Source of the DNA: Candidatus Hydrothermus pacificus
Lineage (GTDB): Bacteria > Hydrothermota > Hydrothermia > Hydrothermales > Hydrothermaceae
NCBI GenBank assembly: GCA_002011615.1
Contig: MTOH01000001.1
Location: 277,043-322,692 of the forward strand
Direction of reading: 5' to 3'
DNA length: 45,650 nt
The notes beneath the pieces were generated by a model, which ran no database searches, was not told the DNA's origin, and saw only the letters and a list, made by a program, of their open reading frames with translations. Shown here piece after piece: positions 19,228-33,513 of the stretch. A program made the translations under genes and the position numbers. Position 1 is the first letter of the stretch, and every line of letters starts with the position of its first letter.

Positions 19228-19260
19228 AGCACCCCCTTTTTAATTTTTAATTAACTATAA

Positions 19261-19289
19261 ATTATACTGAATATAATATCTCATGTCAA
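19261..19289 (-). promoter_or_regulatory. consensus sigma70 promoter for the subtilase gene
   Basis: Minus strand TTGACA (19289-19284), 17-base spacer, TATAAT (19266-19261). Both boxes match consensus exactly. The predicted leader of about 27 bases includes the Shine-Dalgarno at the start at 19227. Element copy B lies 17 bases upstream of the -35 box. Confidence 0.8.
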
Positions 19290-19305
19290 ACATGTTTTAT
19301 ACTAC

Positions 19306-19331
19306 TTTTTATATGAAATTTTTATGCCAGA
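19306..19331 (-). promoter_or_regulatory. shared upstream element, copy B
   Basis: Matches 25 of 26 bases of the element at 6885-6910, in the same orientation relative to its gene. On the minus strand it reads TGGCAT-N5-TTTCA. Here it sits upstream of a perfect sigma70 promoter, so it could be a second, alternative-sigma promoter or an activator/repressor site. Confidence 0.45.
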
Positions 19332-19352
19332 TTCTTGTAATTATATTTTTTA

Positions 19353-19420
19353 TTGCAAATCAATAAGATTTGAAAATTTAATAAAACTTTATGTCGCAAA
19401 AGTGCAACAATAATTTGCAA
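19353..19420. promoter_or_regulatory. TTGCAA-type inverted repeats upstream of element B
   Basis: TTGCAAAT (19353-19360) and its exact inverse ATTTGCAA (19413-19420) bracket a stretch that also holds GTGCAAC (19402 region) and CGCAAAA. The half-sites resemble the TTGCA/TGCAA pair upstream of element A. The whole intergenic space 19228-19455 (228 bases) otherwise holds only the promoter and element B. Confidence 0.3.
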
Positions 19421-19455
19421 TTTTACAAACATTGTGCTAAGTCAGCAAATGAAGT

Positions 19456-21120
19456 CTATTCTGAAATCTCTTTTACCAGAATTTTATAAAGAGGGCTTTC
19501 TTTGTTCCATTTTTTCATATCTTCAAGGGTTTTAAGAGCCTTTTCTCTTTCACCTTGCCTTAAATACTCATTTATTAAAAGAAAAAAGCTCCTTTCAGGA
19601 TTTATCTTCATCTGGTGGGCTTTTTTTAAGTATTTTAAAGCCTTTTTATTACCCTTTATATGGTATATGTGACCGAGCGTCAATAAGGAGAAGGGATTAC
19701 CAATGGGTATTGATTTTAAGGCAAAGTTTTCAGCCTCATTTGTTCTATCGGTTAAAAGGTAAAAATCTGCAAGTTTTCCGTAATAATCCGAGGGCGAATA
19801 TTCATAGGGCAAGGAAAATGTTATACTCTTTACCTTTTCAAAATCTCCTTTAAACATATAAAGGCTCCATAAATCGTAAAGATATGCAGGGTCTTTTGAA
19901 AAATAATATTTTTCTTCAAGATTCTGAATTACATCCTTTGAGGGAAACCGGACAAATAAAGTCTTTCCTTTGAATAAAAAACCAAAAGGTAAAAGGAATA
20001 GAGGAATCCATCTGAATTTATAAAAGAATTGAGAGAATATTCCGTAAATTAGTGATATTAAAAGGGGATAGTAAAAGGGATAGGCAAGATGAACCCTTGT
20101 TTTTAAGAAAAAGCCTGCCGAGAGGTAAAAGGCAAATAAAGAAAGTAAAAATTCCTTTAATCCCCTGTTTAAATTAATTTCTTCAAAAAATAAAAAGCAG
20201 GAGACAAAAAATATAAAGGGAATATGACCAAGGGCAAAAGCAGAGGAAATTGATAAGAACCAGGATAAATAGGATTTTCTCTTTATTGAGAGAATAAATA
20301 TCATTAAGGGAAGGGAAAGATAATCAAAGAAAATTAAATTGTGAAAGTCTGTCTTATGCCATGCTGTAAGCCATCCAGAGATAAGGAAAAACAATGTAAA
20401 GTTGAATTTAAAGTTTATTTTAAAATAATTTTTTTTCTGAAAGGCAAAGGAAAGTATGATAAGTATCACTATGTTGTAAATTAAAATTTTGTCCTGATTA
20501 TAATAAAGGAATCCTCCATCACCGAATACATTTGTTCCGAAAAACTTTAAGGATAAAAAATAGGGTGAACCCAGAAAAACGACCGCTAAAAAGGGAATGG
20601 GTAAAAATAAAATTGATTTTATTTTTCTGCCCTTTAAAAATACATAGACTGCTCCGAGAATTGATGCACCTGCAAGTTCTATGAACTGTCCCTGCGAAAA
20701 ACCCAAGGAATACCATATCCATTTGTTTGAAAAAAGGTTTTTTAATGCCTCTTCGGGTTTTAAAAGATAAAAGTACCTGAAGCCACCTCCATGAAAGATA
20801 AAGTCCCATACAGGTGGTATTAAAATCCATGGGGTGAATAAAAAAACAATTTTTAAAACTTTATGTCTATCCTCTCCTGAAAAAAGAGAAATTAAAAGGG
20901 CAATTAAAAAGAACATATTTATAAAGAAAACAGGATAATCAAGCACAAGCAACCTGACTGATTCCCAAAAAACCATCTTTGTGCCCATCCTTAAACTGAA
21001 TGTAAGGGATGTCTCTATTACCTGTCTTAAATAGAGAAAGGAAAAAACATAAAGAAGAAGTTTTTTATCATCAAACTCCTCTGCTTTTTTTTCTATTAAG
21101 AAAAGAATTTTTTTTAACAT
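19456..21120 (-). CDS. multi-spanning membrane protein with C-terminal TPR domain
   Basis: 554 residues. About residues 30-355 contain ten or so predicted membrane helices (for example DYPVFFINMFFLIALLISLF and ILIYNIVILIILSFAF) with few charges. From about 385 to the end the protein is soluble and helical, with tetratricopeptide-like units (LWSLYMFKGDFEKV, GKLADFYLLTDRTNEAEN, LLTLGHIYHIKGNKKALKYL, LLINEYLRQGEREKAL). The layout recalls GT-C glycosyltransferases with TPR tails, but I cannot see a catalytic DxD/DE motif with confidence, so no function is assigned. Its ATG overlaps the DUF1573 stop by one base (TAATG), so the two are coupled. Confidence 0.7.
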   Translation of the reverse strand: MLKKILFLIEKKAEEFDDKKLLLYVFSFLYLRQVIETSLTFSLRMGTKMVFWESVRLLVLDYPVFFINMFFLIALLISLFSGEDRHKVLKIVFLFTPWILIPPVWDFIFHGGGFRYFYLLKPEEALKNLFSNKWIWYSLGFSQGQFIELAGASILGAVYVFLKGRKIKSILFLPIPFLAVVFLGSPYFLSLKFFGTNVFGDGGFLYYNQDKILIYNIVILIILSFAFQKKNYFKINFKFNFTLFFLISGWLTAWHKTDFHNLIFFDYLSLPLMIFILSIKRKSYLSWFLSISSAFALGHIPFIFFVSCFLFFEEINLNRGLKEFLLSLFAFYLSAGFFLKTRVHLAYPFYYPLLISLIYGIFSQFFYKFRWIPLFLLPFGFLFKGKTLFVRFPSKDVIQNLEEKYYFSKDPAYLYDLWSLYMFKGDFEKVKSITFSLPYEYSPSDYYGKLADFYLLTDRTNEAENFALKSIPIGNPFSLLTLGHIYHIKGNKKALKYLKKAHQMKINPERSFFLLINEYLRQGEREKALKTLEDMKKWNKESPLYKILVKEISE

Positions 21121-22007
21121 TATTTAACAATATAAGGCAATTTTAAATGAACTTCTATATCTCCTTTGTCTTTCATTTTTAAAGGAAAAAATATTTTTAT
21201 CTTTTGTTTTGGTTTTAATCTCTTATTCGATAGAAGAACATTTTCCTCAATCAAAATCTTTTTTATCATAATCTCTTTTTTTCCTGAATTAAAAATATAA
21301 AGGGTATCACCGTTTTTATTGAATATAAGAGGAGAGAAAAGGGTGAGATAATTTTTATGAACTCTACCCCTGATTTTTATAAAATGATACAGATACCCTT
21401 TTATATTGGTTGTAATTTTTATCTCTTCATCAATAAAACCTGTTTTAACAGGAGCAACTTCAATATTTATTACTTTTCTCTCATCCGGTGCTATATGAAT
21501 CGGGAAATCAGAAATTATTTCACAGTTTGGTGAAGGGGTTGCTCCAAGCAGGATAAGTTCTGCATCTCCTGTATTTTTAACATAAAAAAATGTATCTTTT
21601 ATTTCGCCAGGATAAAGATTACCCACATTAATTATTTCAACGCTCTTAAGTTCTGGTTTTGGAAGAGGGAATATGTGTGCCTTTATTTTAAGTCTTATAA
21701 AAGGCTCATAGGGGTCGTTTGTATGAATGAGTATTTCTTCCTCAAACTCTTCTTTTTTACCTTCTGTTACAATACCTGCTTTTAAAGATGTCGAATCACC
21801 CGGCTCTATTGTATTCTTATCAATGATAACAAAGGTGCAACCACAATCTTTTTCTATATTAATTATTTTAAGAATATCATCACCCTTATTCCTGATCGTA
21901 AAGTTAACCCTTATCTCATCACCTTCTAAAATTCTGCCTGCATCAAATATTCTCGGTAATACCTCTATTCTGGGATAAAGAAAAAACAAAAAGATAAAAA
22001 GTTTCAT
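21120..22007 (-). CDS. secreted DUF1573-family protein
   Basis: 295 residues. The first ~15 residues are a short hydrophobic signal-like stretch. The DUF1573 motif follows: FDAGRILEGDEIRVNFTIRNKG, then IEKDCGCTFV near 52-61 and the beta strands up to about 115. A second immunoglobulin-like (ASH/MSP-type) domain starts at about 122 (SVEIINVGNLYPGEIKDTFFYVKNTG) and a further strand-rich segment ends the protein. Such domains bind other surface or periplasmic proteins; no enzymatic role is known. It lacks a Shine-Dalgarno and is coupled to the membrane/TPR protein, which suggests the two work together in the envelope. Confidence 0.78.
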   Translation of the reverse strand: MKLFIFLFFLYPRIEVLPRIFDAGRILEGDEIRVNFTIRNKGDDILKIINIEKDCGCTFVIIDKNTIEPGDSTSLKAGIVTEGKKEEFEEEILIHTNDPYEPFIRLKIKAHIFPLPKPELKSVEIINVGNLYPGEIKDTFFYVKNTGDAELILLGATPSPNCEIISDFPIHIAPDERKVINIEVAPVKTGFIDEEIKITTNIKGYLYHFIKIRGRVHKNYLTLFSPLIFNKNGDTLYIFNSGKKEIMIKKILIEENVLLSNKRLKPKQKIKIFFPLKMKDKGDIEVHLKLPYIVK

Positions 22008-22087
22008 AAAACTTAATTCAACCCGCTTCCCTTTTTCACATTGATTGAACCTGCTTCAAAAAATCATGTTATCCGGTCAAAAGTATT

Positions 22088-24676
22088 TTATTGTCTTATA
22101 AATTTGCTATGAAGATTTTTACCTCCTGCTTTTAACTCTATAAAGTATATACCTTTTGGTAAACTTTTAACAGGAATGAGAATGTCACCTTTAGAATTAA
22201 ATGTACCAGAAACTATGTTCCTGCCCATCACATCAAATATTTTTACATTGAAATAACCATTTATACCACTTACACGCAGAAAATCATTTGCAAAACTTGA
22301 GACCACGGGTTTAAATTGATACACGGGTTTAACTTTCTCTTCCACATTTAATCCAAACCAGGCAAGTATTTTAGCCATAAGTTCTTCACGGGTTGTATGA
22401 TTTGTCCAGTTGTTATCTATGGCCTCAAATGGGAACGCAAAATACAGACTCTTATAAGTTCCTGAATTGTATCTTACAGCACATGGACCATAGTTCGCAG
22501 AACCTGAAGAATTACTGTAATAAAGGGAAGTATCTGCACCTGATAAGGCAGTTATTTTGTCCACATCCATCGCATTCTGAGCCCCACCAGTACCTGTGAT
22601 TCTTAAATGAACACCATCACCTATCGGGTCTCCACCATATCCTTTTATCCATCTATAGAGCAAATCATTTCCGACAATCTGGGTTTTAAGGGTATTGGTA
22701 ATGAAAGTTTGAGCATCTGCATCTTCAGCAAGAAATTGTGATGATATAAACAGTCCTCCACCGGATGAAAGATAGGCATTTAAAGAATCAATCTCCTCTG
22801 TGGATAAAACTTCTGTTGAATCATTTCCAGTAAACCATATAAATAGATTCCTGGGATGAGCAAAAAAGCTGTGTAATCCTTCTCTATCAACTATCCAGGT
22901 CTCATAAACAACTCCTAAATTATCAAGTGTTGATTCATAGAAACTTCTCAGATAATCATTGTCTCCGTCATCTACAAGCACAAGCCCTGGATAGCCTATG
23001 AGAACCTTGAGGGTATCAACAGGTTTTACAGTGGAAGGACTTGAACTTATGTTTATAACAAAATAGGAGAACCTGACATTACCAGACACAGAGAATTCAA
23101 AAAAGTCGGTCGTAAGAACTGAATCTCCATTTTGAAGGGAAGCTACATATATTGTGCTGTCTGAAAAGGAAATATTCGGGTCACTTGTGGAAACTGTGAT
23201 GTTTATATTATTTGCATTCTGCCAGTATTTTTCATTATATAGATTTAAATACATCTTAACAACTTCACCAGGTTCTGGCCTTCCATCACCATCAAATTGA
23301 AAATTCTTTACAATTATATTTGAGTAAATTGATTGTGCAAGGGCTCTATAAAGATTAACTCTACCCCATCCGAGAAGCCCCTGATAATTCGGATTAAGTG
23401 AGTCTATGTCATCACAGGATTTCATTATTATAGAATCTGTTTGATAGGATGTCCAGCCAGGATGAAGCGACCTTACCATACCTGCTATACCACATACAAC
23501 CGGTGAAGCCATTGAGGTTCCATAAAACCCATCATATCCATTATTCGGAACTGTGCTTAAAATGTTATCACCGGGTGAAGAAACATCTATCCATGTTCCA
23601 TAGTTTGAATAGGAAGATTTAATATCATTTGAATTTGTTGCAGCAACAGCTATAACATTTGGATAATTTGCAGGATAATGGGGAGTCTGGATATTGTCAT
23701 TCCCTGCAGCAGCACATATTGTTACATTCCTTGTATCATGTGCCCATATCATTGCATTTCTTTCAGATGAATTTTGAGAATAAGAGCCATAGGAATGGTT
23801 TGTTGCAACCGCACCTTTGTTTCCTGCATAGTAAATTGCATTAACAGCAGCAGAAATATAGATATATTGCCCATCTCCGCACTTAAAAGCCATACCTCTC
23901 ACTTTCCAGCCCACACCTGCAACTCCTACACCGTTATCCGTAGTTGCAACAGCAATCCCAAACACATGTGTTCCATGGTCATTTCCATTTTCTGTGGGGG
24001 TTGGGTCCCATCCCTGTGATGGGTAAAACCTAAATCCTATTATATCATCAACATATCCATTTCCATCATCATCAACACCGTTTAAATCCTGTGGGTAATC
24101 AAACTTATCATTTCCGTTTAAATCCTCGCCAGGGTTAACCCAGAGTTTATCATAAAGGTCTTCGTGGTCCCAGTCAACACCTGAATCCACAGGTCCTACT
24201 GCAATTGTGGAATCACCCTTTGTGATATCCCAACCCTGAGGTGCCTGTATCTTTGGCAGATGCCATTGCTGGGAATACATCGGGTCATTGGGTTCTATCA
24301 AAAGGGGCTTTGCCTCATCAACTTCTGCAATTTCAATGCCTGTAATTTGAGAGAAGGTATTAACAAGTGATGGGGCATCTATCGGATTTTCAAAAACAAG
24401 AAGATAGTATCTATCAAGTCCATAAAGTTTTGCATCCTCTGTTATTTTACCATAAATAAGTCTTTTTACTTCCTTAAGTCCATAACTTTTTGCAAGATTG
24501 TCAATTTCAGGAATACCAAGCTCTTTACCCGCAAGTGTAAGAGCAGAACCATTATCCCATACCTCTTTTAAGTTCTTAACAGCTATGCTGTTATATTCGG
24601 GATTGAGTTTGATTATCAGATGATAAGGATGAAACTTAATTGATGTAACCAGCATTATACCTATAATTATATTCAT
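22088..24676 (-). CDS. secreted S8 subtilisin-like protease with C-terminal sorting domain
   Basis: 862 residues. Hydrophobic start (1-13) as signal; propeptide about 15-125; the NDPMYSQQWHLPKIQAPQGWD lead-in is typical of thermitase/fervidolysin-type subtilases. Catalytic Asp 164 (GPVDSGVD), His 234 (NDHGTHVFG), oxyanion Asn about 326 and Ser 388 (GTSMASP). An Asp/Asn-rich insertion (about 186-212, DLNGVDDDGNGYVDD) looks like a calcium loop. After the protease come a beta-sandwich (about 465-565), an alpha/beta domain with GGGLFISSQFLAED recalling ThuA/glutamine-amidotransferase-like folds, and a T9SS-type sorting domain ending FIRQ (VKIFDVMGRNIVSG ... KGIYFIEL). A strong GGAGGT precedes the ATG. 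Confidence 0.92.
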   Translation of the reverse strand: MNIIIGIMLVTSIKFHPYHLIIKLNPEYNSIAVKNLKEVWDNGSALTLAGKELGIPEIDNLAKSYGLKEVKRLIYGKITEDAKLYGLDRYYLLVFENPIDAPSLVNTFSQITGIEIAEVDEAKPLLIEPNDPMYSQQWHLPKIQAPQGWDITKGDSTIAVGPVDSGVDWDHEDLYDKLWVNPGEDLNGNDKFDYPQDLNGVDDDGNGYVDDIIGFRFYPSQGWDPTPTENGNDHGTHVFGIAVATTDNGVGVAGVGWKVRGMAFKCGDGQYIYISAAVNAIYYAGNKGAVATNHSYGSYSQNSSERNAMIWAHDTRNVTICAAAGNDNIQTPHYPANYPNVIAVAATNSNDIKSSYSNYGTWIDVSSPGDNILSTVPNNGYDGFYGTSMASPVVCGIAGMVRSLHPGWTSYQTDSIIMKSCDDIDSLNPNYQGLLGWGRVNLYRALAQSIYSNIIVKNFQFDGDGRPEPGEVVKMYLNLYNEKYWQNANNINITVSTSDPNISFSDSTIYVASLQNGDSVLTTDFFEFSVSGNVRFSYFVINISSSPSTVKPVDTLKVLIGYPGLVLVDDGDNDYLRSFYESTLDNLGVVYETWIVDREGLHSFFAHPRNLFIWFTGNDSTEVLSTEEIDSLNAYLSSGGGLFISSQFLAEDADAQTFITNTLKTQIVGNDLLYRWIKGYGGDPIGDGVHLRITGTGGAQNAMDVDKITALSGADTSLYYSNSSGSANYGPCAVRYNSGTYKSLYFAFPFEAIDNNWTNHTTREELMAKILAWFGLNVEEKVKPVYQFKPVVSSFANDFLRVSGINGYFNVKIFDVMGRNIVSGTFNSKGDILIPVKSLPKGIYFIELKAGGKNLHSKFIRQ

Positions 24677-24768: not shown

Positions 24769-24798
24769 TTGACAAGCATTTGTTTTTTTTGTTATAAT
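24769..24798 (+). promoter_or_regulatory. consensus promoter for the secreted Asp-box protein
   Basis: TTGACA (24769-24774), 18-base spacer containing a T run, TATAAT (24793-24798). Both boxes are exact. The predicted start is about 24805 and the leader is about 55 bases with a 5' hairpin. Confidence 0.82.
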
Positions 24799-24859: not shown

Positions 24860-26611
24860 ATGTATAGATGGGTAATAAGTATGGTGATGGTAAGCGGGTT
24901 GCTTGCACTGCAACCTGTAAGGGCGCCCGTTCACGATAACATGAATATGGACAATACTCCTGTACCCACTGTGCATGTTCCTGTTCTTACAACTGATGGA
25001 GACACCCTGATGACCCCCTTTGTAAACAACCCTACTCAGAGGGATTATCAGGTAAATGGTCCTGTTCCCACAAGACTCTGGGCTGTTGAGGAAATTAATG
25101 GAACCTATGCAAACATGATGTATCAGTATGCAGATGGAAGAAGACAGGCAACTAACTTCTTTGACTGGGCAACTCAAACATGGGCTGCTGACAGTGCAGG
25201 ATACGATACAACCGGATTAAGGAATGGTGGGTATGGAAATATGGCTGTAAACTACTCCAATGCCATTGGCTATCAGTATCACTTCTTTGTAACCTTCCAT
25301 TCAGATGGCTATAGTTATCAGGGTGATGTTCAATGGCCTGACACACCTTTTGACCCGACAAATCCAAGTCCCACTTACACAGTTCTTGCAGGTGAAGACA
25401 CAAACCAGGTATGGCCATATGTGGGATTCACTCAGGAAGGATATATGCAACAGGTATTTACTGACTACGATGGACACATCTCTGGAGTGGCATATGCTAT
25501 TATATACGACAGAAGTTCTGATTACACAATGTGGGACGGTATGGTTCCCATAGTGAATACAGGAGATGGCCCATGGTATGGATTTTATTCTGACCCCTTC
25601 TCAAACAGGGTTGTTTTAACCTACTGCAGAACATCCTCTGACAATCACATCATTATGCTCGTTGACACAATGTCAGGAGACATGTTTTATGCAGGTGTGC
25701 CCCTTCAGGTTGATGTAAGCCAGGAAATACTCAATCAAACAGGAACAACATACTATGTAGGGTTTGTTGGAGATGGAAATCCCTTTGTTGATAAAGACGG
25801 GAATGTGCATCTGATAACATTCGGCTCTGATGGCACAAATGTTGCACCTGTTGAGATTTATCACTTCTTCTGGGACCTCCAGGCCGATACAATGGGTGTT
25901 ACCCTTATAAAAACCCTCACAGACCTCTATTATCCTGCGGGTGTAAACTCACTTGTTGCAGGAAGAAGCCAGATGGGTCAGGACAGAAACAACGGAATTC
26001 TCTATGCTGTATGGGAAGAGTTTATTCAGGAACCCGGAAGATTTGTCACCAGTTCAACAAACGACACTCTTGCTCCCACAAGAATAATCCTTGCCCAATC
26101 TCTTGACAACGGTCTTACATGGACAGAAACTGTTCTTCTTGAAAGTGACCAGATAAGAGACAACAATGACTGGTTGAGATTCCCTGTGATCTCACCCGTT
26201 GTCCCGAGAATAGGAGCCTACGATGTTGTTTACTGGGGAGTTTATGACGATGATGACCCCGGATTCGTATGGCAGGCACAGGGAGGTGTTTCCTGGGTCG
26301 GCATGCTTGTTGGAAGAAAAGAATATGTGAGCGTTGCAGAAACTCCTGTATTTGCAGACAATGGACTTAAACTTGATTACAACCTGAGAGGTGGAAACGT
26401 TATATTTAACTTCAATGTTCCTTCAAAATCTCCTGTTACAATGAAAGTGGTTGATATATCAGGAAGAACTGTGAGCACACTGTTCAAAGGAACCGCACAA
26501 GGTAAACACTCAATCACATGGAATGCATCAAAAGTTCCTGCAGGAATTTATTTCTGCAACTTCAGAGCAGGAAACAGCACACTCTCACAGAAGATACTTC
26601 TCTCAAAATAA
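24860..26611 (+). CDS. secreted Asp-box protein with C-terminal sorting domain
   Basis: 583 residues. Signal peptide about 1-22 (MVSGLLALQPVRA). The main body (about 60-490) is strand-rich; an Asp-box SLDNGLTW lies at 414-421, the motif of sialidase-like beta-propellers, and NNGILYAVWEEF before it fits a propeller blade. I see no sialidase catalytic set, so I call it a surface beta-propeller of unknown ligand. About residues 500-583 are the T9SS type A/FlgD-like sorting domain (MKVVDISGRTVSTLF ... VPAGIYFCNFRAG). It has its own consensus promoter, an excellent Shine-Dalgarno and a perfect terminator, so it is probably highly expressed as a single gene. GC and codon use are richer than in neighbours. 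Confidence 0.85.
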   Translation: MYRWVISMVMVSGLLALQPVRAPVHDNMNMDNTPVPTVHVPVLTTDGDTLMTPFVNNPTQRDYQVNGPVPTRLWAVEEINGTYANMMYQYADGRRQATNFFDWATQTWAADSAGYDTTGLRNGGYGNMAVNYSNAIGYQYHFFVTFHSDGYSYQGDVQWPDTPFDPTNPSPTYTVLAGEDTNQVWPYVGFTQEGYMQQVFTDYDGHISGVAYAIIYDRSSDYTMWDGMVPIVNTGDGPWYGFYSDPFSNRVVLTYCRTSSDNHIIMLVDTMSGDMFYAGVPLQVDVSQEILNQTGTTYYVGFVGDGNPFVDKDGNVHLITFGSDGTNVAPVEIYHFFWDLQADTMGVTLIKTLTDLYYPAGVNSLVAGRSQMGQDRNNGILYAVWEEFIQEPGRFVTSSTNDTLAPTRIILAQSLDNGLTWTETVLLESDQIRDNNDWLRFPVISPVVPRIGAYDVVYWGVYDDDDPGFVWQAQGGVSWVGMLVGRKEYVSVAETPVFADNGLKLDYNLRGGNVIFNFNVPSKSPVTMKVVDISGRTVSTLFKGTAQGKHSITWNASKVPAGIYFCNFRAGNSTLSQKILLSK

Positions 26612-26636
26612 AGAAATTAGTTTAATCTTTAAACCA

Positions 26637-26664
26637 GGGGCACCCTGCAGGGTGCCCCTTTTTT
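26637..26664 (+). terminator. intrinsic terminator of the Asp-box gene
   Basis: A perfect 22-base palindrome (26637-26658, GGGGCACCCTG and its inverse) is followed by six T (26659-26664). It lies 25 bases after the stop and separates the intact gene from its decayed copy. Confidence 0.95.
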
Positions 26665-26679
26665 ATTTACGGATAAATT

Positions 26680-28125
26680 ATGCATAAAGAGATATTAACT
26701 ATCTTAATGTTAACCGGATTTGTGGCTCCACAGTTAAAAAGGGCACCGATTCATGATAAAGAATATATATATATTGCACACCGCCCGGTAATGCAAATTT
26801 TCCAACAATTACAAAAAGGAGTGATACCCTCACTCTTCCATTTGTAAACAATCCAAGCAATCGGGATTATCAGACAAACGGTCCTGTATCCACAAGACTC
26901 TGGGCTGTTGAGGAAATTAATGGAACCTATGCAAATATGATGTATCAGCATCCTGATGGAGTAAGACAGGCAACTAACTTCTTTGACTGGGCAACCCAGA
27001 CTTGGGTGGGTGACACCGATGGATACGACACCACAGGATTAATACGCGGCGGTTACGGAAACATGGCTGTTAATTACTCCGCATCTTTCGGCTATCAGTA
27101 TCACTTTTTTGTCACATTCTACACTTATAACTGTCAGGCTTCGGTTCAATGGCCCGATACACCATTTATTCCCACAAACCCGAGCCCGACCTACACGGTG
27201 CTTGACGGTGAAGATTACCAACAAATATGGCCTTACATAGGATTAACCCGGTCCCATCTCCATCAGATATTTACCGATTACGACGGTCATATTTCAGGAG
27301 TGCAGTACGCCATTATATATGATAGAAGTGCTGACCTTGCATCATGGGACGGTATGGTTCCCATAGTGAATACACCTGATGGTCCATGGTATGGATTTTA
27401 TTCTGACCCCTTCTCAAACAGGGTTGTTTTAACCTACTGCAGAACATCCTCTGACAATCACATCATTATGCTCGTTGATACAATGTCAGGAAACATGTTT
27501 TATGCAGGTGTGCCCCTTCAGGTTGATGTAAGCCAGGTGGTACTCAATCAAACAGGAACAACATACTATGTAGGATTTGTTGGAGATGGAAATCCCTTTG
27601 TTGATAAAGATGGGAATGTACATCTTATAACATTCGGTTCTGATGGACAAAATGTTGCACCCGTGGAAATATACCACTTCTTCTGGGATTTAACAGCCGA
27701 TACAATTAATCTCACCCATTATTCCCAGTATAGGCTCGATTGATATAGTTTACTGGGGAGTCTATGATGACCATGAGCCCGGCTTCGTCTGGCAATCGCA
27801 AGTCCCTGACTCTGTATCCATGCTGGTGGGGAAAAAAGAATATGTAAGTATTAGAGAGTTTTCTGCATTTCCAATAGATGAGGTCAAATTCAATTACAAA
27901 TTTATGAACAGAAACATTGTTTTTAATTTCACCATTCCTTCAAACTCTCATACTATAATAAAGATTTTTGATATATCAGGAAGAACTGTGAGCACGCTGT
28001 TCAAAGGAACCACACAAGGTAAGCATTCAATCACATGGAACGCATCAAAAGTTCCTGCAGGAATTTATTTCTTTAATGTGAAAATCAAAAATAAATCACT
28101 CTCATCCAAAATATCCCTCTTTTGA
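26680..28125 (+). pseudogene. decayed tandem copy of the secreted Asp-box protein
   Basis: Aligns along its whole length with the gene at 24860-26611 but is broken in two places. (1) The first 55 codons (26680-26847, MHKEILTILML..., ..RAPIHDK) run out of frame after an (AT)6 tract at 26763-26774; deleting one AT unit restores the match to the parent frame. (2) At 27706/27709, a 293-base segment present in the parent (25894-26188 region) is missing, which shifts the frame again and removes the Asp-box; the middle frame stops at 27743. The last part (27709-28125) again matches, ending in a recognisable sorting domain (IKIFDISGRTVSTLF). No good promoter or Shine-Dalgarno is seen after the upstream terminator. 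Parts are nearly identical to the parent, others diverged. Confidence 0.9.
26763..26774 (+). repeat. (AT)6 dinucleotide tract at a frameshift
   Basis: Six AT units inside the decayed gene. Removing one unit (two bases) gives codons matching the parent (..DKEYIYC-TP.. against DNMNMDNTP), so slippage here explains the first frameshift. Confidence 0.75.
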
Positions 28126-28191: not shown

Positions 28192-29115
28192 CTAACCGCC
28201 GAGATACTGGTTTATCTTCTCAAGAATATGAACCTTGGCATCAGGGTCAAATGGGTCAGAAGGAGGCACCCATGAAGGGTCAAGTTCAACAATAACCTGG
28301 ACGCAGAAATTCATGAAGTTAATTTTATAAGCAGCATAGGCTAATAGCGCTATAGACCTTGTATAGTCAGTATATGGATAATGAGTGAATTTCAGAGAGG
28401 TATCTGCAAGATTTCTAAGCACATTCCCTGCGATAATTGCTGATAGAAAATCTTCATTTGCCACATAAGTTCCAACAAGTCCTGTATAAGAAAGGTAAAT
28501 ATTCTCAGGAACAGTAGGGGTAGTCGGGCTGTCAAGATAATAATAGTTCAGGAAAAATGTATCCACAAGGGTGTCTGCAGTATTTGGATAAAGTGTATCT
28601 TTGAGAAAAATTAAAGAATCGCTTATATCAAAATATTCTGGTTCAACATACTTCTGTCCTTTTTTGATTTTAATGGATGAGTAGCACAGAAGGGGTGTAT
28701 TTGCAACTTTAACATGCCATATAGCCTCGCCCCCAATCATTGAATCAATTCCCCAGCGATTGGTATCCGTTTCTGCAAATGTTTCGTTAAACATGGGGAC
28801 ATCAAATCTATTAATGCCCTGTTTAAGTGAGTAAAGTATAAGTGTGAAACTGTAAGCAGAAGCAGCATCTTCAAATTTTGAGAGCTGAGTTGCAGTCCAT
28901 GCCTTTCCAAAATAAGCTTCTTCATAAAAGGCGTCAAGGGTTATTGCAGAATCAAAGAGGGTCAAAGCAGTGGAAAAGTCACCCTCATCATATTTATCCC
29001 ATGCTTCATTGAGAATATCTGAAGCAACAGGAGGTGTAATATCCGGAGGATTTTCTTTAACACCGCAGGAGAGAGCAAGCACCACCAAAAATAAAAGAGC
29101 TATTTTTTTCATCAT
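28192..29115 (-). CDS. TPR-containing outer-membrane lipoprotein
   Basis: 307 residues. Lipoprotein signal MMKKIALLFLVVLALSC with Cys 17 as lipidation site. Two TPR-like units follow (about 32-100: LNEAWDKYDEGDFSTALTLFDSAITLD and EEAYFGKAWTATQLSKFEDAASAYSF). The centre (about 110-230) is strand-rich and unassigned, and a further helical part (about 230-307) ends the protein. It is the last gene of the exbB-to-28192 operon. TPR lipoproteins next to a TonB-dependent receptor recall SusD partners, but no SusD signature is visible, so a role in substrate capture or in T9SS-like assembly is only a suggestion. AGGAGGAT precedes the start. Confidence 0.75.
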   Translation of the reverse strand: MMKKIALLFLVVLALSCGVKENPPDITPPVASDILNEAWDKYDEGDFSTALTLFDSAITLDAFYEEAYFGKAWTATQLSKFEDAASAYSFTLILYSLKQGINRFDVPMFNETFAETDTNRWGIDSMIGGEAIWHVKVANTPLLCYSSIKIKKGQKYVEPEYFDISDSLIFLKDTLYPNTADTLVDTFFLNYYYLDSPTTPTVPENIYLSYTGLVGTYVANEDFLSAIIAGNVLRNLADTSLKFTHYPYTDYTRSIALLAYAAYKINFMNFCVQVIVELDPSWVPPSDPFDPDAKVHILEKINQYLGG

Positions 29116-29126
29116 CCTATCCTCCT

Positions 29127-32100
29127 TTAGAAAACAATCAATTTAAATTTTCTGGAAAACTTGTTATTTCTGGACTTAATCATAAAGTTCATAAAGTAAA
29201 CACCTTGTGTCAGGGTATTCTTTAAGGGTAAGTTGAACTGGTGAATTCCCGGGTCTAAATCCTTCATCCTTATTTCTTTAATGTTTCTTCCCATTATATC
29301 GTAAATTTTCAAGTTTAAAATGGACTTTGAGGGTAGTGAAACAGAGAACTTAAGCAGAGAATTTACAGGGAGCATGTTTTTAGAAAGTTTGACATCAAAC
29401 TTTGCAGGTAAAACATTGGGCTTACCTTCCATCACAGCAAATATACCGAGAGAAGTCGTGTAGGTATACAAAGTGGTTTCTCCTTCTTTATAAGTCTCGC
29501 ATTTTACAGGAACACCCTGTTCAATCCTGTATATTGAAATATCATCTCTGTTCTTGAATTTTTCACTGTGAAAACTGATCTTTACGGGTTTTGAGAAAAT
29601 TATGTTAGAATGTCCAACAGAGTAAACAGCAGTAGCGTTGTTATTCGCAATATAATTTTCAGGAAGTGAACTTGCAAAGACCATTCCACTGAATCCTGAA
29701 TTCTCAGGCATTTCAAGGGTGACATTTCCTCCAAGGAATGAATAGAGACCTGCACCTGTCACATCTCTCACACTCACAGTATCGTAAAAAACAATCGTGG
29801 TATTTCCTACAAGGTCCTGAGCATAACTGTAGACAAGGATATCTCCCTTTATGTCAGAGATCAGAGAAACCGTCCCGTTATAAATTGCAAAAGTATCTCC
29901 TGTCTCAACAAGGGATAACTCTGTAGAAGTGGACGGTAGATTCTTGTCCAGTGGTCTGAAAATAACCGTGGGGTCAACACCTGCGCCAGCATCTCCAAAC
30001 AGCGCATCAAGAGCATTAAAAATGGTATCTTTTCCACCAATCACATAAAAATCAATGGCGCTTGTTACAACAGGGTTTTGAAGTATATATTTGTTAAGCC
30101 AGTTAGGAGCTCCTCTTTCAACAGAGTAGGCAAAATAACCTTCAGCCAGAGAACTGTTTACAAGAACATATCCGTAATCTCCTGCAGGAAGTGTATCTTT
30201 CAACATGTTACGAGCCTTTTTGAATATTTCTATGGTATCATTCCCGACCACTATGTATTCCACTGTGGTATCAAAAGTCATCTTTGTAACCAAAGGAATA
30301 GAATCAAATGTGATTCTATAAATTCTGAAACCGTATTCAGGGCTACCAAAATTATCTTGGAGGTCAAACTTATAAACCTGTGAATTAGTATCTGACCTTG
30401 TGAAATACATTGCTGACTGGGGCAAAATCACATTAGAGCTTCCAGCAGAGTCAGGAATCAAAGCTCTGTAAGTATTCGGGCTGGAATAATTGAATATACT
30501 GTCAACCGCATTGTATCCATATAAACCACCACCAAGAGAAGGGTCGTCAAGCAAGTTGGCAACTGCCCATGCTCCAAAGGTTTCATCAAAACTCAATCCT
30601 ATGTTCTGTGGAAGATAGTATTCGAAAAGTTCCTGCCCATCACGGTCTTTATCTCTCATCATGGCTTTGAAAATCACACTGTCCGCTCCTGAGGTATCAT
30701 TATTAAATGCACTGATAAGTCTTTCTCTTATATAGAGGAACCAGTATGCTATCCTCTCTCTATCAAAATCTCTTGCAACCGGTGACCTTAACCAGTTTGC
30801 AGTGAAATCAAAAAGAGGCTTACCAATCCTGACTATACTGGTTGAGAAATCTCTTCCCGGTTTGATTCCTATATTCTGGTCGCCTGTAAATATGTTAAAT
30901 CCAGCAAGATGAAGTGCAAGCATTGAGAATCCAACCCTTACAATCTTTGATTCCTCATGTTCCAGACTCCAGCAGGAGTATAAACTGTAAAGATAGGATA
31001 AATACTTTGCGAGTAAAAGAGAGTCAAGAACTCCTGTAGCAGTATCTACATAAAACACTGAAGGGTCATAGTTGAAATTCAAAACAAAAATTTCTTTTAA
31101 ACTGGCATCAGGGTTTGAAGGGTCAAGGTCATAATCATCAAAATAACCATAAAGGGGTTTTACTTTGTTTAAGCTTGAATCTGTTGAAGCTTCCAGAGGA
31201 TAGAGTACAATATCAATAACAGAATCAGCGTTCATATCCCACAGTTCTTCATCTTTGACTCCTAAAACAGTTTTCATCCTGTTAAAGAGATTTTCTCCGG
31301 TGTAAGTTTCGATAACATATTTTACGGTCTCAACTTCCTCATCAGCAAGGAAGTTTTTTATATTCCTGCTGAAATTCATCCATCTACCCTGAGCGTTATC
31401 AAATTTCCATATACCCTGGTCATTTGCAACAAAAAGCACATTCTCAAGATTATCAAAATATATTACCCTGCAGTTCAGGGAACCATAAGCACTAAGATAG
31501 GAGAATCCTTCGTTCATCTCCTCCCAGGTTCCTCCCAGATTTTGAGAACGAAGCACCCCATTTCCATAAGAAGCAATCCAGAAATAGCCAAATCCATAAT
31601 CTATATCATACAGGTTATAACCTGAAAGTGCTGAGTTCCAGTTACTCCCACCATCAAGTGAATAGAATAAGCCATCTGCTGTAAGGATAACTATTGTATC
31701 AGAGTTAAAGATTTTAATCTCATTGACATTGTAAATTCCGGATATTGAAGACCATGAACTTCCATCCCAGACCCACAGGCTATCACCTCCGGCATACACA
31801 TTCTTTGTCACAGGTTGAACAGCAACTGCGTTCATTTTTTCAGTGAGATTACCCAGATGTATTGCCTCTGCCAGACTATCTTTCTGCTGAACAGCCAGTT
31901 GTGATACTCTGAGTTTATAAACACCGCTATCTGTTGCTGCAAAAAGAATTTCCAGTGTATCAACCGGGATAGGTCCCACACTATCAGGGTCAAAAACTAT
32001 GGAATAGACAGGCTTATCAATAAAACCTATTTTACCGAAATTATTACTTGGTGGAACATTCTGTCTCTGAGAATAAATACCTTTGTTAGTTGCAAAGTAG

Positions 32101-32531
32101 AAAACCGCCCAGTTTCCAGCAGTTTGAGGAGGATTCGGGTTTGTAAGAATTTTGTATATCTCAACATCCTCTCCCAGACTATTAACACCCTGGGTTGTTT
32201 GTTTCCAGAAAAATCCACCATTCTGTGAGTAAAAACAATAATCAGACACACTATCAGATAAACCTGTTGCAACAAAATATGCAAAACTATCAGGATAAGC
32301 AAAAGTTGACCAGTTTCTTCTCGCAATATCATTAACAACTATTTTTTCTTTCAGGCTGACCAGTGCAAAGTTCTCTCCAACATATCTTACAATTCCTGTT
32401 TTTAGTTCAGGGTCTCTGGATAGAATGAGATAGAACTGATTAACATAGAAATCCACTGAATCACCAAGATTAGGTCTGGCAGCACCCAGAATGCACACAA
32501 GTCCTGTAATAAACAAGATTACCTTTTTCAT
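29127..32531 (-). CDS. giant secreted Asp-box propeller protein with C-terminal sorting domain
   Basis: 1134 residues. Signal peptide about 1-18. Residues about 30-375 form a BNR/Asp-box-like propeller: YSQNGGFFW near 101, YSLDGGSNW at 290-298, RSQNLGGTWEEM near 325 and ANDQGIWKF near 368. A long middle region (about 380-700) holds alternating helices and shows no family that I recognise; about 700-1040 look like Ig-type beta domains. The final 75 residues are the T9SS type A sorting domain (LNLKIYDIMGRNIKEI ... TQGVYFMNF ... FKLIVF). It is 13 bases downstream of the PorV-like gene with its own AGGAGG, so cargo and likely export factor are co-expressed. Confidence 0.82.
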   Translation of the reverse strand: MKKVILFITGLVCILGAARPNLGDSVDFYVNQFYLILSRDPELKTGIVRYVGENFALVSLKEKIVVNDIARRNWSTFAYPDSFAYFVATGLSDSVSDYCFYSQNGGFFWKQTTQGVNSLGEDVEIYKILTNPNPPQTAGNWAVFYFATNKGIYSQRQNVPPSNNFGKIGFIDKPVYSIVFDPDSVGPIPVDTLEILFAATDSGVYKLRVSQLAVQQKDSLAEAIHLGNLTEKMNAVAVQPVTKNVYAGGDSLWVWDGSSWSSISGIYNVNEIKIFNSDTIVILTADGLFYSLDGGSNWNSALSGYNLYDIDYGFGYFWIASYGNGVLRSQNLGGTWEEMNEGFSYLSAYGSLNCRVIYFDNLENVLFVANDQGIWKFDNAQGRWMNFSRNIKNFLADEEVETVKYVIETYTGENLFNRMKTVLGVKDEELWDMNADSVIDIVLYPLEASTDSSLNKVKPLYGYFDDYDLDPSNPDASLKEIFVLNFNYDPSVFYVDTATGVLDSLLLAKYLSYLYSLYSCWSLEHEESKIVRVGFSMLALHLAGFNIFTGDQNIGIKPGRDFSTSIVRIGKPLFDFTANWLRSPVARDFDRERIAYWFLYIRERLISAFNNDTSGADSVIFKAMMRDKDRDGQELFEYYLPQNIGLSFDETFGAWAVANLLDDPSLGGGLYGYNAVDSIFNYSSPNTYRALIPDSAGSSNVILPQSAMYFTRSDTNSQVYKFDLQDNFGSPEYGFRIYRITFDSIPLVTKMTFDTTVEYIVVGNDTIEIFKKARNMLKDTLPAGDYGYVLVNSSLAEGYFAYSVERGAPNWLNKYILQNPVVTSAIDFYVIGGKDTIFNALDALFGDAGAGVDPTVIFRPLDKNLPSTSTELSLVETGDTFAIYNGTVSLISDIKGDILVYSYAQDLVGNTTIVFYDTVSVRDVTGAGLYSFLGGNVTLEMPENSGFSGMVFASSLPENYIANNNATAVYSVGHSNIIFSKPVKISFHSEKFKNRDDISIYRIEQGVPVKCETYKEGETTLYTYTTSLGIFAVMEGKPNVLPAKFDVKLSKNMLPVNSLLKFSVSLPSKSILNLKIYDIMGRNIKEIRMKDLDPGIHQFNLPLKNTLTQGVYFMNFMIKSRNNKFSRKFKLIVF

Positions 32532-32544
32532 CTAAACCTCCTTT

Positions 32545-33513
32545 TTAAAAGCTAAAAGAAAGCCCCACCCTGTGGATATCAGGCAAGGCACCAAAATCTG
32601 AAAATGCATAGTCAATTCCCATCTTCTTTGCAGGATATATTCCGAATCCAAAGGCAAGCCCACCTTCATCAAGATTAAGAGTGTATCCTCCCCTTAAATG
32701 GAGTAAATTCATATAAGAAATCTCGGTTCCAAAAGAGAAATACTCTTCATTATCATTTGGATGGGCACCATCAAAGGACACTGTCCACTTAAATACCGGG
32801 GTTTCAATCATTTCCATTGCTGCGCCCACACGAAAAACTATGGGAAGAGGATAATCTATATACTCCTTATCAAAATCTTCCTTCAGGGTATACTTTACAT
32901 ATTTACCTGTTGGTTTTAAATTGGGTCCCAGATTCTGCATGGACATCGCAACTCTAAAAGATTTCCATCCTGTCCAGAAAAGGGTTCCAGCATCAATTGC
33001 GAAGGAGTAAGCCGATGTGACATCTGCATACTTTTCATAAATCATTTTAAGATTTACACCAAAAGAGAATTTTTTTGTAAACTTTTGAGCATAGGTTATC
33101 CCGGCCTGAAGAGCGTTGTATGCCACTTCATCACCTGTCGGATATGGACCTATGTTTTCATCTACAATTGCTTCCTGAAAACCGGGGCTATATAGATAAC
33201 CTGTAAACACACCTAATTTGCCATAACCCATATAATCCTGAACATAGGAGAATCCACCGAGATAATTCTCTGCAATATAATGGGTATATGTGAAACCCAA
33301 AGACCTGGGAGATGTGATTTCAGCAAGTCCTGCAGGATTCCAGAATGTGCAGGAGGGTTCACCAAAAAGTGCAGTGTAGGCATCAGAAAGTCCAGCTCCT
33401 CTTACAGTTATCGGAATGGAAAGAAATTTGGCTCCTGCAAAACCAACTTTTCTCTGGGCATTCAGAGAGAATATTAATGCACTCATCATAACCAGCATAA
33501 AGATTTTTTTCAT
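32545..33513 (-). CDS. PorV/PorQ-family outer-membrane protein
   Basis: 322 residues. Signal peptide about 1-19 (cleavage after NAQ-type end). The family core follows: FLSIPITVRGAGLSDAYTALFGEPSCTFWNPAGLAEI, then amphipathic strands throughout and a terminal Phe (RVGLSFSF), the usual barrel-assembly signal. PorV binds the C-terminal sorting domain of T9SS cargo and carries it to the attachment complex; PorQ and looser relatives share the fold. It lies directly between two genes for sorting-domain proteins in one operon, which strongly supports a T9SS-like role here, though PorV and PorQ cannot be distinguished by eye. Confidence 0.85.
   Translation of the reverse strand: MKKIFMLVMMSALIFSLNAQRKVGFAGAKFLSIPITVRGAGLSDAYTALFGEPSCTFWNPAGLAEITSPRSLGFTYTHYIAENYLGGFSYVQDYMGYGKLGVFTGYLYSPGFQEAIVDENIGPYPTGDEVAYNALQAGITYAQKFTKKFSFGVNLKMIYEKYADVTSAYSFAIDAGTLFWTGWKSFRVAMSMQNLGPNLKPTGKYVKYTLKEDFDKEYIDYPLPIVFRVGAAMEMIETPVFKWTVSFDGAHPNDNEEYFSFGTEISYMNLLHLRGGYTLNLDEGGLAFGFGIYPAKKMGIDYAFSDFGALPDIHRVGLSFSF

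What the first reader, a model, noticed from the sequence alone, without database searches (positions are those of the whole stretch)
24860..28125. Tandem duplicated secreted protein gene with mosaic identity, suggesting gene conversion
Seen: the decayed copy aligns end to end with the intact gene, yet identity is patchy. A 95-base block is identical (25571-25665 and 27384-27478), and the sorting-domain region is nearly identical, while the stretch just before (25430-25530 against 27240-27330) has many mostly silent changes. Inference: recent gene conversion from one copy to the other on an older duplication, perhaps a reservoir for varying a surface protein.
Basis: seen in the sequence. Interest (0 to 1): 0.55.

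Follow-up and report, generated by a model that had tools for sequence, protein, structure and literature searches.

The report
Tandem gene pair mixed by conversion
An old side-by-side pair of genes for a secreted bacterial protein has had a few short stretches copied from one gene to the other, more likely from the working gene into the one that is now broken, which is an ordinary genome process and gives no sign of a store of surface variants.

Summary
Copy A (24860-26611, intact, 583 aa) and copy B (26680-28125, decayed) align along their length except for 293 bases missing from B. Silent differences are strongly uneven: 87 of 167 same-residue codons outside three islands, but 8 of 94 in 25530-25846 (containing the exact 95-base block), 3 of 34 in 25043-25171 and 4 of 30 in 26448-26546, in the sorting domain. 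The nine other pairs among A, B, two further copies (C, D) and a positional relative in another genome (E) show no such island, but for one B-E stretch inside the main tract. This is best read as ectopic gene conversion on an old tandem duplication.

The 'reservoir' reading is not supported. The direction tests favour intact A as donor and decayed B as recipient (975 of 1000 bootstraps), and there is one tandem copy only.

The protein has a leader, a sialidase-like beta-propeller-type model and a type IX secretion sorting domain. A second tandem pair in this genome (gingipain-like peptidases) has a sharper tract over its sorting domain, so the process is not unique to this pair. Known kind of event; low to moderate interest.

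The parts
24860..26611 (+). Copy A: intact gene, 583 aa, hydrophobic leader, beta-rich propeller-like body, T9SS type A sorting domain (residues 514-580)
   Evidence: ORF; TIGR04183 32.8 bits over cut-off 23; PF18962 30.1 bits over 27; model pLDDT 72.7
24769..24798 (+). Promoter-like site of copy A, TTGACA-18-TATAAT, 12 of 12 consensus positions
   Evidence: the leader of E aligns to A's leader through it and the ribosome-binding site (score 25, 0 of 300 shuffles reach it)
26636..26659 (+). Terminator-like hairpin with T run between A and B
26680..28125 (+). Copy B: decayed tandem copy; frame broken near 26760-26778 and by the loss of 293 nt at 27706; no promoter-like match listed on the + strand between 26168 and 27456
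25043..25171 (+). Smaller, weaker tract in A (B 26865-26993): 3 of 34 same-residue codons differ
25530..25846 (+). Main conversion tract in A (best-scoring segment 25535-25846 = B 27348-27659): 8 of 94 same-residue codons differ; holds the exact 95-nt block 25571-25665
26448..26546 (+). Sorting-domain tract in A (about B 27965-28063): 4 of 30 same-residue codons differ
27343..27659 (+). Main conversion tract in B (probable recipient)
   Evidence: direction
27706..27709 (+). Junction of the 293-nt loss in B (A 25894-26186 missing)
28192..29115 (-). TPR-repeat gene that marks the locus; its counterpart (54% identical) directly follows the single copy E in genome G039

Best explanation
A and B are an old tandem duplicate of a secreted, T9SS-sorted, probably beta-propeller protein. 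They diverged, mostly under purifying selection, until silent sites were saturated. In about three stretches (some 130, 320 and 100 bp) homologous recombination then copied sequence between them (interlocus gene conversion); the more likely direction is intact A into B. B lost its reading frame and 293 nt late in its history. Shown: the silent-site mosaic and its near-restriction to this pair. Inferred: that recombination without crossover made it, the direction, and the protein's role (a cell-surface or released carbohydrate-binding or -cleaving propeller). Not resolved: whether B broke before or after the last conversion.
For: Silent difference A-B 87/167 outside against 8/94, 3/34 and 4/30 inside (Fisher 1e-13, 2e-6, 1e-4). 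In the main tract the other pairs are AC 30/67, AD 32/61, AE 23/58, BC 25/65, BD 29/58, BE 18/54, CD 28/58, CE 25/49, DE 30/55, so it is not a silently constrained stretch. Trees: A-B path 0.57 substitutions/site outside, 0.08 in the tract, A and B neighbours in both. Old duplication: neither the region before nor after the genes matches between A and B (scores 8, reached by 191 and 75 of 300 shuffles). Direction: B-E silent 75/117 outside against 18/54 in the tract (p 0.00025), B-C 83/146 against 25/65 (0.017), B-D 63/99 against 29/58 (0.13); A-E 66/128 against 23/58 (0.16), A-C and A-D p 0.24 and 0.75; C-E and D-E not lower; B shifts more than A in 975/1000 bootstraps. A's leader aligns with E's, the region before B does not. 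The same process elsewhere: tandem C4 peptidase pair, last 360 nt 344/360 identical up to the stop codon, bodies 272/610 silent differences.
Against: The direction rests on 97.5-98% of bootstraps and few sites, and the tracts are somewhat closer to the outgroups for A as well. Some differences inside the main tract are clustered multi-base changes, so it may be two or more events. The two smaller tracts are significant only after the main one is removed. No strains or reads were available. B against E has a low-silent stretch inside the tract (1 of 4000 shuffles), which conversion between two genomes cannot explain; I read it as ancestral codons kept by B and since changed in A.
Confidence: 0.87

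Rival explanations
1. B is a silent donor cassette and conversion from B varies the expressed protein A.
For: B is broken and has no promoter-like match just before it, A has a perfect one; broken donors are used in known antigenic-variation systems (PMC4534519, passages).
Against: Direction tests favour A to B. A single tandem copy at the locus. In the main tract A and B differ at only 3.8% of replacing sites, so the transfer makes the proteins alike. The other tandem pair C-D shows no significant tract (438 of 4000 shuffles).
Confidence: 0.04
2. A and B are a recent duplicate, and the divergent stretches of B were imported from a third, diverged gene.
For: Would give the same mosaic.
Against: More than half of the compared codons (289 of 472 columns) would have to be imported in several pieces; neither the region before nor after the genes matches between copies; outside the tracts A and B are still nearest each other (support 0.96 nucleotide, 0.90 protein).
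Confidence: 0.04
3. Assembly artefact: reads of A and B merged in the near-identical stretch.
For: The window comes from a 19-contig draft assembly; some contigs elsewhere end inside similar T9SS genes.
Against: The main tract holds 20 base differences in 106 codons, not zero; both copies sit 1.8 kb apart inside a 342-kb contig; more than one island; a second tandem pair shows the same.
Confidence: 0.04
4. No conversion: the islands are regions of strong silent-site constraint or codon bias.
For: The main island codes for a slightly more conserved part of the protein (A-D residue differences 42/106 against 129/242, p 0.02; A-C and A-E p 0.10 and 0.09).
Against: Seven of the nine other pairs are not less diverged at silent sites in the main island at p < 0.05; the two that are, B-C and B-E, both involve B, as expected if B received A's sequence.
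Confidence: 0.01

Closest known systems
Interlocus (ectopic) gene conversion between duplicated genes, the process reviewed in PMC3924818 (passages seen; they give mean tracts of about 200-300 bp in yeast and rodents) and, as concerted evolution in prokaryotes, PMC6053082 (abstract and outline seen)
   Same: Patchy silent-site identity between paralogs of one genome, tracts of about 100-320 bp
   Different: Partial, not whole-gene, homogenisation; one copy is now decayed
Silent-cassette antigenic variation (Anaplasma msp2, Borrelia vlsE, as described in PMC4534519, passages seen)
   Same: Intact copy with a promoter-like site beside a broken copy without one, and segmental conversion
   Different: Inferred direction is the reverse, a single tandem copy, copies made alike rather than varied, no population data
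Recombination among T9SS-exported surface protein genes of Porphyromonas gingivalis (PMC5266723, passages seen)
   Same: T9SS cargo genes changed by recombination
   Different: There domain rearrangement and allelic exchange among strains of a pathogen; here between paralogs within one unnamed draft genome

Membership tests
Ectopic gene conversion between paralogs | Local run of silent identity longer than shuffled silent sites allow | tested here: met
   2 of 20000 permutations for the main tract
Ectopic gene conversion between paralogs | Low divergence confined to the pair at the same columns | tested here: met
   one B-E stretch is an exception
Ectopic gene conversion between paralogs | Non-reciprocal transfer with an identifiable donor | tested here: inconclusive
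   A to B favoured, 975/1000 bootstraps; not proven
Silent-cassette antigenic variation | Silent copy lacks a promoter and is broken | tested here: met
   (consensus scan only)
Silent-cassette antigenic variation | Sequence moves from the silent copy into the expressed gene | tested here: inconclusive
   favour the opposite direction
Silent-cassette antigenic variation | Several donor copies | tested here: not met
   One tandem copy at the locus; four copies in the draft genome, no tract of A or B with C or D
Silent-cassette antigenic variation | Variants of the expressed gene within a population | not testable with these tools
   No other genome of the genus or family among the 59 relatives listed
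T9SS type A cargo (TIGR04183) | C-terminal sorting domain over cut-off | tested here: met
   32.8 bits, cut-off 23; genome has 69 places at E 0.001, 63 of them over the cut-off, and a SprA match of 377.6 bits in one frame, cut-off 200
Sialidase or PL25/GH-type propeller enzyme | Beta-propeller fold with Asp-box | tested here: inconclusive
   Model pLDDT 72.7; Foldseek best hits 7esk, 5mvh, 5uas, 5mul at TMq 0.41-0.46, sialidases 2bzd, 1eut at 0.34; family profile matches a sialidase chain at positions 399-431, E 3e-6; no Pfam enzyme family at E 0.1
Sialidase or PL25/GH-type propeller enzyme | Catalytic residues | not tested
   not examined

The most novel reading that the evidence does not exclude
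In this lineage the T9SS sorting domain behaves as a recombining module: conversion repeatedly overwrites the last 100-360 bp of cargo genes, and closely similar sorting domains have even moved between cargo with unrelated bodies (three genes on contigs C3, C4 and C16), so that sorting signals evolve in concert while the cargo bodies diverge.
Probability: 0.12. Interest if true: 0.5.

Novelty: new member of a known kind. Interest (0 to 1): 0.25.

Why it matters
It is a clean natural example of partial gene conversion between old tandem paralogs in an unnamed draft genome, with further copies that allow control and direction tests. The general point, if it held across the T9SS cargo of such genomes, would be that export signals and cargo bodies evolve on different tracks; this is testable from existing assemblies.

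Tried and rejected
Codon usage (GC3) as a pointer to the donor was not decisive: A and B have 0.33 and 0.44 in the middle part, 0.35 and 0.28 in the main tract. Polarising single differences left most undecided: 25043-25171: A 1 silent and 1 replacing, B 3 replacing, 6 undecided; main tract: A 3 silent, B 3 replacing, 14 undecided; sorting domain: A 2 replacing, B 1 silent, 5 undecided; so I do not use it to date the decay of B against the conversion. A two-state model with parameters that I set called five tracts; I keep the three that the stepwise permutation supports.

Conversion within the C-D pair of contig C10 was tested and not found (best stretch 0 of 15 codons differing, 438 of 4000 shuffles). 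Conversion biased towards sorting domains genome-wide was tested on the 69 places: of 60 pairs whose bodies (up to about 1.5 kb upstream for most) align at a local score of 100 or more, 4 have a lower silent fraction in the last 90 codons at uncorrected p < 0.05 (C4 tandem 4.7e-11, A-B 0.0028, C12/C13 0.011, C6 tandem 0.043), one of which survives correction for 60 tests; 2 pairs go the other way at p < 0.05, one of them (C5/C16, 0.00018) surviving correction. So it is only a lead.

Print was searched in the held open-licence library only: 'type IX secretion' + 'C-terminal domain' + 'domain shuffling' (0 papers), 'T9SS' + 'recombination' + 'sorting domain' + 'paralog' (0), 'type IX secretion' + 'gene conversion' (5), 'gingipain' + 'C-terminal domain' + 'gene conversion' (2); general searches (listings).

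The single scan of genome contigs gave only a sorting-domain match in a Flavobacterium draft. The first, returned version of this report was checked against the calls; the marker-gene and leader claims were then tested.

Full report
What is there. The window lies in an unnamed 2.06-Mb draft genome (G000, 19 contigs; window = C1:277043-322692). Copy A (24860-26611) is an intact 583-codon gene with a perfect promoter-like site (24769-24798), a purine-rich ribosome-binding site and a hydrophobic leader (seen in the sequence) and a T9SS type A sorting domain (TIGR04183, 32.8 bits against a cut-off of 23). A terminator-like hairpin follows (26636-26659). Copy B starts 68 nt after A's stop codon, has no promoter-like match just in front of it, has a broken frame near 26760-26778, and lacks 293 nt that A has at 25894-26186.

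Check of the observation. The 95-nt identity is real and at the stated places. Counting only codons in which A and B keep the same residue, 102 of 324 differ, and they are not spread evenly: 8 of 94 in 25530-25846, 3 of 34 in 25043-25171, 4 of 30 in 26448-26546, and 87 of 167 elsewhere; chi-square 74.3, p 5e-14; permutation of the main tract 2 of 20000. The two smaller tracts are significant only once the main one is set aside (129 and 2 of 20000; 4805 and 4791 of 5000 otherwise). By Nei-Gojobori counting pS is 0.80 in 25227-25529, 0.15 in 25530-25846, 0.94 in the next 15 codons, 0.61 in 26187-26447 and 0.18 in the sorting-domain tract.

Controls. The same genome holds two more full-length relatives in tandem on contig C10 (C: L009 3082-4832, frame broken once; D: L009 4906-6576, intact), and genome G039 of the same class holds one (E, 582 aa). 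At the columns of the main tract the nine other pairs give AC 30/67, AD 32/61, AE 23/58, BC 25/65, BD 29/58, BE 18/54, CD 28/58, CE 25/49, DE 30/55. A scan of each pair for low-silent stretches found none reached by fewer than 312 of 4000 shuffles apart from A-B and one B-E stretch inside the tract (1 of 20 codons differing, 1 of 4000). B and E are in different genomes, so I read that stretch as ancestral codons which A has since changed; it is a result that the simple story does not predict.

Age and direction. E is followed 40 nt later by a TPR gene 54% identical to the one that follows B, and then by a large gene 53% identical to the next one in the window; E itself is 53-54% identical to A. 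E's leader aligns with A's through promoter and ribosome-binding site (score 25, 0 of 300 shuffles), whereas the region before B aligns neither with E's leader (286 of 300) nor with A's (191 of 300). So A is the positional counterpart of E, and B is an extra copy; since G039's contig begins 114 nt before E, a further copy upstream of E cannot be excluded. Outside the tracts B is farther from C, D and E than A is (relative distance 1.05 against 0.93); inside the main tract both are at 0.82-0.83. B-E silent difference falls from 75/117 to 18/54 (p 0.00025), B-C from 83/146 to 25/65 (0.017), B-D from 63/99 to 29/58 (0.13); A-E goes from 66/128 to 23/58 (0.16), A-C from 84/155 to 30/67 (0.24), A-D from 52/107 to 32/61 (0.75); C-E 64/121 to 25/49 and D-E 43/103 to 30/55 do not fall appreciably. 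B shifts more than A in 975 of 1000 bootstraps for the main tract and 983 of 1000 for all tracts. This favours A as donor without proving it. Outside the tracts the A-B path is 0.57 substitutions per site, in the main tract 0.08.

B's history. Between the tracts B differs from A far more at silent than at replacing sites (25227-25529: pS 0.80, pN 0.17), and the open frame that holds most of B's 5' two thirds runs 327 codons without a stop. So B was probably a working gene for most of its life and broke late (inference). Whether it broke before or after the last conversion cannot be told from the few polarisable differences.

What the protein is. An AlphaFold2 model on 14 sequences (pLDDT 72.7, pTM 0.72) is mostly beta. 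Foldseek's best solved structures are lyases and hydrolases of glucuronate, rhamnose and ulvan sugars (7esk, 5mvh, 5uas, 5mul; TMq 0.41-0.46) followed by sialidases (about 0.34 and less), with levanases, sortilin and integrin further down; TMq runs from 0.22 to 0.46 over the 50 listed (that the top ones are beta-propellers is recalled). A profile of the family matches a sialidase chain at positions 399-431 (E 3e-6), the part where A reads SLDNGLTW, an Asp-box (motif name recalled). No enzyme family of Pfam appears at E 0.1. The family is scarce nearby: 2 of 40 genomes of the class, its own counted, and 22 of 147 of the phylum at E 1e-20, these two counted and most of the rest matching only part of the profile (at most 9 candidates scored per genome).

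Is it special? Of 141 ORFs of at least 120 codons in 12 stretches (the window and 11 loci), 22 pairs match at E 1e-15; 3 are the same gene in overlapping stretches. Of the other 19, 9 are among the copies of this family. Four of the 19 are reached by 20 of 2000 shuffles or fewer: A-B (0), the C4 tandem pair (0), the C6 tandem pair (19), and a C5-start/C16-end pair whose shared part lies at both contig ends (0); a C3/C16 pair has 37. In the C4 pair, two gingipain-like C25 peptidases, the last 360 nt are 344 of 360 identical and similarity stops at the stop codon (27 of 90 downstream), while the bodies are 627 of 1156 identical in residues with 272 of 610 silent differences. Three sorting domains (C3:32481, C4:54237, C16:22468) share 51-54 identical residues over 74-89 with silent fractions of 0.30-0.33 (median 0.53 over 1739 pairs) although their bodies align only at scores of 40-44. 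The stretches were chosen around sorting-domain hits, so they say little about other gene classes.

Reading. Ectopic gene conversion between old tandem paralogs, more likely from the intact to the decayed copy, is the best-supported explanation. The reservoir idea is weakened by direction and copy number and has no population evidence. The event is of a known kind; the possible concerted behaviour of T9SS sorting domains is a lead that deserves a survey.

Noticed in passing
L061 2152-5898 and 6087-9920 (G000:C4): Tandem C25 (gingipain-like) peptidase genes with bodies 54% identical but the last 360 nt 344/360 identical, ending sharply at the stop codon: a clearer sorting-domain tract than the one in the window.
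   Followed up: partly
G000 C3:32481-32669, C4:54237-54398, C16:22468-22626: Three cargo genes without detectable body similarity share very similar sorting domains (51-54 identical residues; silent fraction about 0.3), as if the domain had moved between genes.
   Followed up: partly
L009 3082-4832 and 4906-6576 (G000:C10): Second tandem pair of the same family, also one broken (single frame break) and one intact copy, with similar leaders; no significant conversion tract. The break could be a sequencing error.
   Followed up: partly
G000 C8:1-135 and C8:87030-87164; C5 start and C16 end: Contig ends fall inside closely similar T9SS cargo genes, so the draft may break at such repeats and undercount recent copies.
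   Followed up: no
window 27546-27662 against L011 991-1122: B keeps nearly the same codons as E of another genome here (1 of 20 differ; 1 of 4000 shuffles).
   Followed up: partly
window 16504-24676 and 29127-33513: Other T9SS-type neighbours: two subtilases on the minus strand (one with a PF18962 sorting domain over cut-off), a large protein with a sub-cut-off sorting-domain match and a PorV-like gene just below cut-off.
   Followed up: no
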